Positions 7,313 through 23,660 of a DNA stretch of 28,010 nt are shown here, piece by piece. Every line of letters begins with the position of its first letter. Position 1 is the stretch's first letter. The stretch covers positions 1 through 28,010 of the forward strand of contig JAIXMF010000169.1 of the NCBI GenBank assembly GCA_025201365.1. The letters are read 5' to 3'. The notes beneath the pieces are model-generated. The model ran no database searches. It was not told the origin of the DNA and saw nothing but the letters and a program-made list of their open reading frames with translations. The position numbers and the translations under genes are program-made. Source of the DNA: Syncephalis plumigaleata (lineage: Eukaryota > Zoopagomycota > Zoopagomycetes > Zoopagales > Piptocephalidaceae).

Positions 7313-7896
7313 ATGAGGTAGGTATTCAATGTTTATAGGATATTCATCAGCATCATTAGAGTAGCATCATAATGATATGCTAATTGTTGGATGTCAACGT
7401 ACAAAATATACACGACCTCATCTAAACAGTCATCAGCATTACTAATTATCATTTACTATGATCGCATTCGTGCCTCTTTCTATTCTAGTGCGACAATTGC
7501 AGCAAAACCAAAGTCGGAATTGACAGAAGAGGAGTTGCGAAAGTTGGAAGAGGAGGAATTCAACACTGGCCCACTCTCCGTACTTCAACAAGCAGTACGT
7601 AATAATACTCAGGTACTTATCAGTTGCCGTAATAATCACAAGCTATTGGCGCGTGTCAAGGCATTTGATCGACACTGTAATATGGTACTTGAGAATGTCA
7701 AAGAGATGTGGTCAGAGGCACCAAGAGCTGCTAAGGGACAGAAAAAGTCCAAACCTGTCAATAAGGATCGATTCATTAGTAAGATGTTTTTACGCGGTGA
7801 CTCGGTCATTCTTGGTAAGTAGTAGCAATATTCATACGCTCATTCATTAGTGCTCATTTCATTTCCCTTCTTATAGTTCTCCGTAACACGGTGTAA
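7313..7896 (+). CDS. Small nuclear ribonucleoprotein Sm D2
   Basis: Core Sm ring protein of the spliceosomal snRNPs. Proposed exons: 7313-7317, 7489-7814, 7877-7896; 116 residues (human SmD2 has 118). The body is nearly identical to the family: [20 protein letters not shown], then [16 protein letters not shown], then [20 protein letters not shown], ending VLRNTV. The Sm1 and Sm2 motifs are intact. The start is an inference. The long exon opens at a TCTAG acceptor (7488) in phase 2, and the only good partner found is ATGAG at 7313-7317 before a GTAGGT donor, giving [17 protein letters not shown]. This makes a five-base first coding exon and a 171-base intron, long for this region. The body is certain; the first exon is moderately sure. 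Confidence 0.92.
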
Positions 7897-17129: not shown

Positions 17130-19391
17130 TTAGTGGGTGTGTACTTTATTGCCACTTAACGAATGACTACTGCTCTTCTTGACAGTAAGATTACTTGATT
17201 TTACCTGTAAAAACTCGTAATAAAGCATGAACCATGAAGCGATAACACCAACTGCGCAGTAAACAGATAGCAGCATCAATGGTAGGAATGCCAATCGATT
17301 TACACCGAATAGCATGGAATGAAGTAGACCAGCGTATGTTTGCACGGCAATCAATCCTACGAGATAGATACAAAGTGGTCGACCGAGAATAGTCACCAAA
17401 TGATGATGATGAGTGTCTTGTTCACTACTTGAACTATAGCCATTGTAATATTGGTAAAGCGCGTTAATCAATTAAATGATATGACGCGCATTTCTATTAT
17501 ACATACGCTACAGATCGACCTAGTACCGTGTAGACTATTATCGACCAAATACTGATAATGGCTATTTTCGTAGGACCCTCTACAACAACAACAACAATAA
17601 TAATAATAATGAGATAAATAATAAATAACAAATAACAAATAAGTGATTACCTGCTGGTGTAAATAAAAGGGGCAGCAATGATAGATGACCTGCTGCACTT
17701 AGCAGTACAAATATACGAAATCCTTGTTTACTCTCGATGGCCATTAGACTATACGCAATGATTGAGTTAGTTAGTAGATGCACTGGTAATCAACAATAAA
17801 CATTGTCTATGTTGTTATCGACTACCTTAATGGTATGATCATTAGGAGAACTGCCTTTTCATGAACATGCCATCCAAATAGAAACGATGCATATCCACAA
17901 AGAACAAGAGCAGTGACGAATCGTTTAGTAGTTGGTCGTTTAAATAAGCTCACTAATGCCGGCTAGAATAGATAAAGTGTATTGGTTACTATACTATATC
18001 CTATATATTACTAGATTGTAGATTAGATTACCAGTTGAAATAATAGTGTCAATGCAAAGGTATGCCATGGTAGAATATCCGGTAGTATTCCGTAGGATGT
18101 GTCGCCCACTAATCCACGTGTCATGGATGCTGGCACCACAATATCTCGGCGTAAAACATATTTACTAGCTGTATAGGCAAGTTTTTATTATAAATATGAC
18201 TAGTAGTATTCCTGATCACTTACCCGCTAATAAGAATCGATCAATGAACGAGTATAATGCCCAAAAATTAGGAGCCCAATAAGCATGGCATAGACCACGT
18301 TTAAATGGAAATAGACGCGATATCACTTGACCGAGTTGACCTATAACGAGGAATGGCCCGAATGAAATGAGCGTAATACCAATGACTAGACCGCCTAGTG
18401 TAGCTGTTCGCATTACACCTTGACGTAGTCTATCGTAAGACCAGCCATGAGGGAAGCAGTAGGCACGCAATAAATAGATAAAGTAGGCCGGTGCAAGGTA
18501 TAGGAATATATGCTTGAAGTTTAACAGGATAGCAAACCAAGTTGCCGAGTGGAGTGGACGATTCTAGTATGCAATCGAGTATTAATGATGGCATCATTAT
18601 GTAGCTAGTCAGGTAGGATTATTCACCTTGATCATCTCCACGATAGACATGACAAGAATGCCGTAGAGAAATCCATTATATTGGAAATGAATATGTAGAT
18701 CAATAGAGTTAAGAAGCATCATTAGCTATAGAATTAGTAGTACTTGTCGTGTTAAGGATATGATCAATGATAAGTAGTCCAACATTCAGGAAAACACTAG
18801 CTGCCATGACAATACGTTCCTGCTTAGTATTCCAATCGACCAGTTTGATGAACCTATAAATGATAGATTGTCGATTAATATACATATGCATATATGCATG
18901 TATGCTACGCGCAATGAAATATCATAGCCATTACCGATGTAGAGCATAATAGAGTAGGCCATCAGTTAGGATAACCGTTATACGCTGATACAGAACACAC
19001 GACCAACTCTGATAAGGCAAGGCGGATATCACGGTGATACGCGGGTCAATCCAAGTGGTAGGCAGCGATAATAGATACTCGAACCACGCGAAGAAAGGTG
19101 GATAGTCAAGTGTCCACTCGCTAGTTGCCTATAGTTCATATACTTAAGCCTAGTGACTAGTTACTAAGATAAAGCAATATACTATACCTCGTAATACCAT
19201 TGCGATACAGGTAGTGTATGCGTAATGGCAAGCCAGTTACGATGTACGTCAAAGTCAGTGGAGCGACTATAGCCAATAGAGAATGAATGTGAATGTGAGA
19301 GAATGAGCAGTGGCACTACTTACTAGGAGGGAATAAGCAGTAGTTTAAGCAAGCTACCGACCAGTGCTGCTTGTACGAATGCAGATGACAT
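17130..19391 (-). CDS. ALG8: Dolichyl-P-Glc:Glc1Man9GlcNAc2-PP-dolichol alpha-1,3-glucosyltransferase Alg8
   Basis: ER multi-pass enzyme that adds the second glucose to the N-glycan precursor. Exons (minus): 19391-19324, 19266-19188, 19128-18935, 18853-18762, 18694-18627, 18563-18224, 18168-18032, 17962-17826, 17748-17651, 17579-17507, 17433-17130. Phases agree throughout; 529 residues, against 526 in human. Marks: [15 protein letters not shown] and [18 protein letters not shown] in the lumenal loop region, [32 protein letters not shown], and [18 protein letters not shown]. These distinguish Alg8 from Alg6. Exons 4 and 5 are joined by an AT-AC intron (separate entry); only that junction restores DHIHFQYNG. 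The last exon carries a short Ser/Lys-rich tail not seen in human Alg8; a GTAAAA at its start could be an alternative donor. Confidence 0.95.
18695..18761 (-). other. U12-type AT-AC intron 4 of ALG8
   Basis: 67 nt. The 5' splice site is ATATCCTT, identical to the U12 AT-AC consensus. The branch site is TTCTTAAC at 18715-18708 (consensus TTCCTTAAC), with its adenosine about 14 nt from the 3' end. The 3' end is AC. Splicing joins ATTGATC to ATATTCATTTCC, giving [11 protein letters not shown] as in Alg8. No GT-AG alternative that preserves this conserved stretch was found. Confidence 0.93.
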
Positions 19392-19896
19392 ATTGATAGA
19401 TTAGTATAACTGAAGAATAGGTTGGAATGTAGAGTGTGTGGGTCGTGTCGTGTTTATTTGGCATAAATATGGTAAATATAGTAGGAGAGCGAATACACAC
19501 ACTACGAATGGTAGTAGGAGTTCCTACACGCGAAAGCGGAGTTATACTCAGTCCCTATCATTATTACTATTACTAGCTAGCTAGCTAATCTAGCAATGGG
19601 ATATACAACAGCTTATTCATGTATTAATAAACAATACAACATTATAGTACACTATGTTATGTTTTAAACAATGTTTACTAGGCTATACAAACAAAGCAAA
19701 CGAGTGATGACACAAATATAATTCCGTTTAGGTTAGGGGTTATCCTTATTCATCTTGTCATGGAGTATACAGGTAACGGTCGAGAAGGATCTTATCGTGT
19801 GAGCAGTCCTTCTTCTTATTCTTGTAAACCATATATGCTTGAGTATCGGTCCCAGGACAGGATGAATACAATCGTGTTGATTGATGGATATCCATT
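19392..19896. other. Intergenic region ALG8 / metallothionein
   Basis: 505 bp. The left part is the ALG8 promoter side, with a short AGCTAGCTAGCTAAT palindromic stretch near 19573-19588. The right part, below 19897, is the 3' end of the metallothionein gene. Open frames on the plus strand here are antisense to the metallothionein and not supported. Confidence 0.5.
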
Positions 19897-19989
19897 TTAT
19901 TTGCCACAGTTGCAAGTGGAACCGCAACCGCAAGGATCACCGCAACCACAGCCACCGCAACCTGGATCAGCCTTAGTTTGAGGGATCAT
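19897..19989 (-). CDS. Metallothionein, 30 residues, 7 cysteines
   Basis: Small cysteine-rich metal chelator, presumably cytosolic. The frame from ATG at 19989 to TAA at 19897 encodes 30 residues. It begins MIPQTKADPG, then has the cysteine pattern C11-x2-C14-x-C16-x3-C20-x-C22-x3-C26-x-C28, and ends GK. Seven cysteines, four Cys-x-Cys or Cys-x2-Cys spacings, ten glycines and no aromatic residue are the hallmarks of fungal copper metallothioneins; the 26-residue Neurospora protein also has seven cysteines but different spacing. In the overlapping frames the same DNA encodes nothing family-like. A TATAAATA box lies about 175 bp upstream. Copper, zinc or cadmium preference cannot be judged. It is too short for length-filtered gene calls. 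Confidence 0.85.
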   Translation of the reverse strand: MIPQTKADPGCGGCGCGDPCGCGSTCNCGK

Positions 19990-22644: not shown

Positions 22645-23660
22645 TTATATATGTGTGCGAAAAGTGTTTATTGATTGATGTGAATAAAGATAACAAAATT
22701 CAATGTTAATCAATAGAGATGTTAATAAAATCCATTGCCATTTGTGATAGAAGGATTGAAGAAAGGATTGTACAATTGCCGTACGGCGTTTGGCGTATAT
22801 GATGTCTTTAAGTATGGATTGCCATATATAAAAGATGGTTGTATGATCAGTTGGCTTGTCGCCATATATACTCGCCATTCGTGTACGGTGGATTGCCCAG
22901 AGTGCGCTAACGACTGCTGGCTTGATACACGGTAATAGGTGTTGAATCTACTACCAGCAACTGGTGTACAACATCTTGCCAGCGAGCTGGTTGTTATCTG
23001 CCTGCAGTCTGGAAACAACCTTTGACGTGTGACGGGGTAGTAAGCACATTTTGGCTGAACCGGTTGGACATGTGCTTGTGGAAGGGCGACTTCGTTCGGT
23101 TGATAGTGTACTGATTGCGTGCCCCGTTCCAAGTGAATAGGTCTGACATGACCGTTACATCGCGTTTGTGAGCAACTGTACCAGAAGTAATCGGTGTTCC
23201 ATCTGGTTTGGTGATAACGCACTCGATAGGAAGAGCTAGGATGATTTGCGGGCTAAGCTTCTTGAAATCTGGCTGTATACTTCCTCCAGTTCCTGACCAA
23301 GCGCGTAGTTTGTCGTACCATTGATCTAGAATTTTACCTCTAAGGCGTTTTCTATAGAAGGAATTGGTAATAAACACATGAGGTTCTAATCCGGCTTTCA
23401 TTAGTTGTAGATGTAGTAGCTCGCGTGTCAGTCTGCACCCTAGTGGTGATTCTAGTGAGAAAACGCGGCTAAACCATTTGGTTAATATGCATTTTGTTTG
23501 CAAGATAAGTGGGAGGAGACTAAGGCCACCTTGTATATTGGTTTGCATTATTTGTTTCAAGAATATCTTCTCTTTCTTACCATTCCAAATAAACGTTCGT
23601 ACCAATGAGTGAAGCGATGATATTATGTCACTGCTCGGTGCAGCGACTATTTTGTATAGC
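22645..23660 (-). pseudogene. LINE (non-LTR retrotransposon) ORF2 3' remnant, 5'-truncated and frameshifted
   Basis: The minus strand carries the typical post-RT segment of LINE ORF2: LVRTFIWNGKKEK, then QGGLSLLPLIL, then KWFSRVFS. This corresponds to the widely conserved FxWxGKxxxxxxxxLxxPxxxGGLxL block after the reverse transcriptase. The frame runs from a stop near 23660 to a stop at 22994. In a second frame, from about 22955 to 22645, the C-terminal block HLLPC-x8-ALWAIHRTRMASIY follows, which resembles the His-Cys and Trp segment at the end of the RT-associated zinc-binding domain. At least one frameshift separates them, and the endonuclease and RT core are absent. This is a dead, 5'-truncated copy, the usual product of LINE insertion. 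No target-site duplication could be identified by eye. Confidence 0.8.

What the first reader, a model, noticed from the sequence alone, without database searches (positions are those of the whole stretch)
18695..18761. U12-dependent AT-AC intron in ALG8
Seen: 5' ATATCCTT, branch TTCTTAAC, 3' AC about 14 nt later, and exact restoration of the conserved Alg8 stretch [11 protein letters not shown] only when this intron is removed. Known: the minor spliceosome has been lost from most fungi, including the well-studied Dikarya, and is retained in some early-diverging lineages. Inference: this organism has a working minor spliceosome, which also limits its placement. All other introns modelled here look U2-type, so this is a single minor intron among more than sixty.
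Basis: partly seen in the sequence, partly recalled or inferred. Interest (0 to 1): 0.75.

Follow-up and report, generated by a model that had tools for sequence, protein, structure and literature searches.

The report
Minor-spliceosome intron in ALG8 gene
A sugar-transferase gene in this apparently fungal genome carries one intron of a rare type that needs a second, minor splicing machine, and the genome holds several parts of that machine; it looks real, but it is of a kind already known from other early-branching fungi.

Summary
On the minus strand, 18761..18695 is a 67-nt phase-1 intron, ATATCCTTAA...TTCTTAAC-TCTATTGATCTAC. Removing it restores [14 protein letters not shown] in an ALG8 model (Pfam Alg6_Alg8, 530 bits). 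Of the enumerated single cuts that keep these two exons open, 3 GT-AG and 2 GC-AG cuts exist and none restores that stretch. A collinear copy of the region (about 98% identical, contig C90) has the identical intron. Strict U12 motif pairs occur 26 times genome-wide (18 distinct loci) against 2 for reversed-pattern controls; at 10 of 18, intron removal gives a family match across the junction. U11 and, by 0.7 bit, U6atac exceed Rfam's thresholds, and the U11/U12-25K protein is encoded. A U12 snRNA candidate is far below threshold but has the right core and an Sm-like site. U4atac and the SCNM1 zinc finger were not found; neither search proves absence. No RNA data were available, so splicing is inferred, not shown. 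Minor introns in Rhizopus, Phycomyces, Rhizophagus and Basidiobolus, and minor snRNAs in Lichtheimia, are in print, so this is a new member of a known kind. The point worth following is U4atac, undetected here and in Lichtheimia.

The parts
18695..18761 (-). U12-type AT-AC intron of ALG8, 67 nt, phase 1
   Evidence: identical in the C90 copy
18754..18761 (-). 5' splice site ATATCCTT, exact minor consensus RTATCCTT
   Evidence: rule quoted in PMC2846911
18708..18715 (-). branch-site motif TTCTTAAC (one change from TCCTTAAC, giving a G-U pair with U12)
18695..18696 (-). 3' splice site AC, 14 nt from the last A of the branch motif
18762..18853 (-). ALG8 exon 4, ends ...LLIID(H)
18627..18694 (-). 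ALG8 exon 5, begins (H)IHFQYNGF...
   Evidence: aligned through the junction to the glucosyltransferase of PDB 6snh
17503..19391 (-). ALG8 gene, exons 1-10 as modelled; the other 8 introns between these exons are GT-AG; the C-terminal end of the protein is not resolved
   Evidence: Pfam PF03155 positions 3-409 of 482

Best explanation
The 67-nt element is a U12-type (minor) spliceosomal intron of the AT-AC subtype in ALG8. In the inferred mechanism U11 pairs with UCCUU at the 5' splice site, U12 pairs with UUCUUAAC at the branch site with the branch A bulged, and U6atac then replaces U11 at the 5' site; the exons join to read [14 protein letters not shown]. The genome keeps minor-spliceosome parts (U11, U6atac, a U12 candidate and the 25K protein) and at least nine other likely minor introns. 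Shown: sequence motifs, an open and conserved reading frame after removal, presence of the snRNA and protein genes. Inferred: that the intron is spliced, and by this machine.
For: Motifs and junction; ALG8 identity 530 bits and alignment to PDB 6snh through the junction; second copy of the region with the identical intron; 26 strict motif hits against 2 control hits; 10 of 18 distinct loci give family matches across the junction, 8 over Pfam's cut-off and 2 by PDB sequence search; U11 and U6atac over Rfam thresholds, U12 candidate with conserved core, 25K protein; U11, U12 candidate and U6atac each pair with the intron motifs in duplex calculation.
Against: No transcript data. U4atac not found; SCNM1 zinc finger not found; a human-like 21-base U12 core pattern with up to 3 mismatches found nothing, its reversed control 5; the U12 candidate scores far below its Rfam threshold, E 0.02, and its Rfam search at E<=10 also rings in 7 of 14 control genomes; U6atac passes its threshold by only 0.7 bit and at E<=1 rings, below threshold, in 8 of 14 controls. 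The loose motif score alone is matched by 37 of 100 shuffles of the window. 8 of 18 distinct motif loci gave no family match across the junction.
Confidence: 0.96

Rival explanations
1. A U2-type (major) intron with AT-AC ends, or a GT-AG or GC-AG intron placed a little differently, removed by the ordinary spliceosome.
For: A few AT-AC introns are removed by the major spliceosome (general knowledge); the other 8 introns between ALG8 exons 1-10 are GT-AG.
Against: None of the 3 GT-AG and 2 GC-AG open cuts enumerated restores [10 protein letters not shown]; the 5' site is ATATCCTT, not GT-type-like, and a minor branch motif lies at a minor-type distance; U11 and U6atac genes exist.
Confidence: 0.03
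2. No intron at all: a sequencing error or decayed copy of ALG8 that only looks like an intron.
For: The window is a whole 28-kb contig, about 98% like part of C90, so it could be a poorly assembled second copy.
Against: C90 carries the identical 67 nt; the exons on both sides align to PDB 6snh without a gap at the junction; no stop in exons 1-10.
Confidence: 0.01

Closest known systems
U12-type introns of Rhizopus oryzae and Phycomyces blakesleeanus (PMC2846911; passages and section 11 read)
   Same: Same 5' rule RTATCCTT and branch type; few found (3 and 17 by the Burge method in EST data).
   Different: ALG8 does not occur in the main text of that paper.
Minor introns of Rhizophagus irregularis (205) and Basidiobolus meristosporus (249), PMC10639083 (passages read)
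   Same: Fungal genomes with minor introns; for Rhizophagus also minor snRNAs, minor proteins and a phase bias away from 0.
   Different: Here 18 distinct loci by a strict pattern (a lower bound), and U4atac not found, whereas all four minor snRNAs are reported for Rhizophagus.
Minor spliceosome RNAs of Lichtheimia corymbifera (PMC4133162; passages read)
   Same: There: U12 atypical, second half of U6atac highly divergent, U4atac not detected. Here: U12 scores low, U6atac is 57 bases longer than the model beyond its 5' part, U4atac not found.
   Different: That paper found none of the usual Pol III promoter motifs (TATA, PSE, Oct); here ATCCCAT precedes U6, U6atac, U11 and one U12 copy. [quoted passage not shown]

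Membership tests
U12-type (minor) intron | 5' splice site RTATCCTT | tested here: met
   ATATCCTT at 18761-18754
U12-type (minor) intron | Branch motif close to TTCCTTAAC a short distance (about 8-21 nt, recalled) before the 3' end | tested here: met
   TTCTTAAC, last A 14 nt from the end; both TTCTTAAC and TCCTTAAC recur genome-wide
U12-type (minor) intron | Termini AT-AC or GT-AG at a junction that restores the reading frame | tested here: met
   AT-AC
U12-type (minor) intron | Removed by the minor spliceosome in the cell | not testable with these tools
   needs RNA and loss of U11, U12 or U6atac
Minor spliceosome present | U6atac snRNA | tested here: met
   33.7 bits, gathering 33; 0 of 14 controls over the cut-off
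Minor spliceosome present | U11 snRNA | tested here: met
   53.7 bits over its full length, gathering 39; 35.7 in the genome search
Minor spliceosome present | U12 snRNA | tested here: inconclusive
   27.4 and 22.8 bits, gathering 53, but core GAGUAAGGA, stem-loop and Sm-like site present
Minor spliceosome present | U4atac snRNA | tested here: inconclusive
   no match in G000 at E<=1; pairing-derived pattern found only the U6atac gene; neither shows absence
Minor spliceosome present | U11/U12-25K protein (SNRNP25) | tested here: met
Minor spliceosome present | SCNM1 zinc finger (PF15803) | tested here: inconclusive
   0 matches in G000 and in all 14 controls, so the answer does not show absence
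Minor spliceosome present | 65K, 48K and 35K proteins | not tested

The most novel reading that the evidence does not exclude
This lineage splices U12-type introns without a U4atac snRNA, another RNA (most simply U4) chaperoning its altered U6atac.
Probability: 0.08. Interest if true: 0.75.

Novelty: new member of a known kind. Interest (0 to 1): 0.33.

Why it matters
It adds a genome with minor-spliceosome parts and a set of likely U12 introns to the early-diverging fungi (if it is one), the part of the kingdom where losses are being mapped. It names ten host genes or families at which intron positions can be compared with animals and plants. The failure to find U4atac (Lichtheimia in print, this genome here) makes it testable whether a minor spliceosome can run without it.

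Tried and rejected
U12: the default Rfam search gave nothing and a human-like core pattern gave nothing. A pattern for the sequence shared upstream of U11 and U6atac returned 161 hits against 104 for its control; besides those two genes 28 loci were fetched, and Rfam on 20 of the 28 gave no match at E<=0.1. A relaxed Rfam search found the U12 candidate. U4atac: Rfam at E<=1 gave none in G000; a pattern derived from U6atac pairing hit only U6atac itself, read from the other strand. U4 in place of U4atac: cofolding with recalled human and yeast RNAs gave no support (this U6atac gains -17.3 kcal/mol with human U4atac, -11.4 with human U4, -6.2 with yeast U4). Relatives of ALG8: none in viral contigs; in genome contigs 18 stretches matched a pattern and none encodes a relative, so intron position in other species was not compared. 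Papers holding ALG8 with 'U12-type' or with 'minor intron': 0 and 0 in the held open-access library; ERCC5 with U12 and AT-AC: 0. SCNM1 zinc finger: none.

The 8 of 18 distinct motif loci without a family match across the junction: L001 and L004, L009, L024 and L028 gave no Pfam match; for L008 no junction peptide passed my length filter, so none was searched; the L018 junction peptide gave none, and with neighbouring exons a sub-threshold Snf7 match (19.1 against 27.3 bits) begins after the junction; L027 gave none at the junction and matched Foie-gras_1 only in neighbouring exons. Of the 10 counted, the UCH locus L011 gave no match with its junction peptide alone and matched only when neighbouring exons were added; ERCC5 (L002) gave no Pfam match and E 0.0012 against the PDB; the WD-repeat locus L023 was below Pfam's cut-off (16.7 against 154 bits) and rests on PDB matches. 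In the DHHC locus L020 the branch motif lies 26 nt from the 3' end used, farther than usual. My choice of 3' end for each locus was guided by open frames and by the match. In some searches I used 17755/17756 as the end of one ALG8 intron; one search corrects it to 17749 and no result used here changes.

Full report
What is there. On the minus strand of the window an ALG8 gene can be read as ten exons from 19391 to 17503. A 430-residue stretch of the product matches Pfam Alg6_Alg8 with 530 bits over positions 3-409 of 482 and aligns to the alpha-1,3-glucosyltransferase of PDB 6snh (Alg6, name recalled; E 2.4e-32); the aligned stretch runs straight through the junction in question: [17 protein letters not shown] against LMLIDHGHFQYNSVMLG. 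The C-terminal end was not resolved. The other eight introns between these exons begin GT and end AG, and so does a tentative next one to 17434. The fourth intron does not: 18761..18695, 67 nt, phase 1, begins ATATCCTTAA and ends TTCTTAACTCTATTGATCTAC.

Is it chance? Unspliced, each of the three frames has a stop inside the intron. Enumerating single cuts between the two exons (at least 20 nt, leaving at least 30 and 20 bases of flank) gave 2833 that keep the frame open, among them 3 GT-AG, 2 GC-AG and 18 [15 protein letters not shown] results only from eight slid versions of the 67-nt cut, of which one has a standard pair of ends, AT-AC. A rough base-composition estimate for an exact 5' motif at six cuts plus a branch motif in 12 places is 1.4e-7. 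Told against this: with a loose score that ignores the protein, 37 of 100 dinucleotide shuffles of the window hold a site as good, so motif without frame would not suffice in a window of this size.

Second copy. The window is a whole 28-kb contig (C78) of an unnamed 32.6-Mb, 383-contig assembly. It is collinear with C90 at 97.7 to 99.0% identity in blocks covering 2629 to 28010 of the window. The intron is identical in both (0 differences in 67 positions). The other ALG8 introns compared have 0 to 2 substitutions each and one has 12 indel positions. Identity in a second copy makes a sequencing error unlikely but, at this divergence, says nothing about selection.

Genome-wide. RTATCCTT followed after 15-45 nt by TTCTTAAC occurs 13 times, its reversed control 0 times; with TCCTTAAC 13 against 2. 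Eight of the loci have a near-identical second copy among the hits, leaving 18 distinct loci. At 10 of 18, removing the intron gives a peptide with a family match across the junction. Eight exceed Pfam's cut-offs: ALG8 (530 bits), DUF747 membrane protein (114.8), DCP2 box A (99.8), UCH ubiquitin hydrolase (50.0, only with neighbouring exons added), DHHC (34.4), zf-HIT (33.5), dynactin p22 (33.3) and CDT1_C (28.8). Two rest on PDB sequences: ERCC5 (E 0.0012) and a WD-repeat protein whose match to actin-interacting protein 1 has E 9e-5 and whose best match is a designed propeller, E 5.7e-9. The DCP2 case is the cleanest: 93 residues align to the mRNA decapping subunit 2 of PDB 5j3t without a gap. 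The other 8 of 18 were not confirmed (see Tried and rejected). The 18 are a lower bound for strict motifs, since only two exact branch motifs and one exact 5' motif were searched, and some of the 18 may be chance (2 control hits).

The machine. U6atac: one locus over the cut-off, 33.7 bits (gathering 33), 183 bases against 126 in the model, with a TATA-like box upstream and a run of T at the end; the search at E<=1 also rings in 8 of 14 control genomes, in none over the cut-off. U11: 35.7 bits in the genome search (below threshold) but 53.7 over its full length (gathering 39), with a 71-base insertion in its first stem-loop and an Sm-type AUAAUUUUUUGG. U12: two copies, 27.4 and 22.8 bits (gathering 53), far below Rfam's own line and weak by score alone (E 0.019 and 0.24; the search at E<=10 rings in 7 of 14 controls), but with AAUUAAUGAGUAAGGAUAUAAC, a following stem-loop GGCCUAGGGUAAUGCCUGGCC and AAUAUUUGG. 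U4atac: no match at E<=1, and a pattern deduced from U6atac pairing found only U6atac itself. The U11/U12-25K protein: two neighbouring exons match PF18036 (34.4 bits over a cut-off of 22.8, and 20.1; 0 of 14 controls ring); the joined 189-residue protein matches the U11/U12 25 kDa protein of PDB 8r7n with E 1e-15. The SCNM1 zinc finger was not found, and no control rang either. The 65K, 48K and 35K proteins were not tested.

How it works. Inferred from established knowledge of minor splicing: U11 reads the 5' site, U12 the branch site, U6atac takes over the 5' site. In duplex calculation each of the three candidate RNAs pairs with the ALG8 motifs; U12 pairs with UUCUUAAC at -3.4 kcal/mol against -6.3 for UCCUUAAC, one G-C having become G-U. 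Splicing itself is not shown by any search.

Comparison with print. PMC2846911 (passages and section 11 read) gives U12 introns in Rhizopus oryzae and Phycomyces. PMC10639083 (passages read) gives 205 in Rhizophagus, 249 in Basidiobolus, minor introns in Spizellomyces and Neocallimastigomycetes, and no convincing support in Ascomycota or Basidiomycota; it calls minor introns present with at least three introns, at least two minor snRNAs and a fraction limit; the first two are met here by my own, different methods, the third I could not apply. PMC4133162 (passages read) reports for Lichtheimia corymbifera an atypical U12, a divergent second half of U6atac and no detectable U4atac, which resembles what is seen here; it adds that the other basal fungi show a U4atac copy. 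PMC5604411 (one passage read) reports U6atac but not U4atac or U12 in Apophysomyces. In the held library no paper contains ALG8 together with 'U12-type' or 'minor intron', so this intron may be unreported, but it is one more of a known kind. That the organism lies near the Mucoromycota is a guess from these resemblances and was not tested.

Most novel reading. If U4atac is truly absent, something else must chaperone U6atac. My one calculation, with recalled RNAs of other species, did not favour U4, and absence from two imperfect searches is weak, so I give it 0.08.

Noticed in passing
L031 (U11), L014 (U6atac), L015/L016 (U6), L062 (U12): The heptamer ATCCCAT lies 76, 67, 62 and 54 nt upstream of the predicted starts of U11, U6atac, U6 and one U12 copy; U11 and U6atac share the 18-mer ATCCCATAATWTGATCAT. 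It may be a shared snRNA promoter element; U1, U2, U4 and U5 were not looked at.
   Followed up: partly
L063 1682-1501 (-): A second U12 copy with 5 substitutions in the first 240 aligned positions against L062, but a different 5' flank and no ATCCCAT: a dispersed copy or pseudogene.
   Followed up: partly
window 2629-28010 against C90:384985-413720: The window contig is a collinear second copy (97.7 to 99.0% identical in blocks) of a stretch of C90; eight of the motif loci also come in near-identical pairs, as in a diploid or dikaryon-like assembly.
   Followed up: partly
about 19895-19980 (-): Short Cys/Gly-rich metallothionein-like reading frame ending ...CGCGSTCNCGK, read by eye.
   Followed up: no
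22994-23659 (-): Open frame that looks by eye like part of a LINE-type retroelement; no Pfam match.
   Followed up: no
7376-7822 (+): LSM-domain protein (60 bits) that looks like SmD2, a core protein shared by both spliceosomes (name recalled).
   Followed up: no
L014 1683-1501 and L031 1698-1501 (-): U6atac and U11 are 57 and 64 bases longer than the Rfam models; U11 has a 71-base insertion in its first stem-loop.
   Followed up: no
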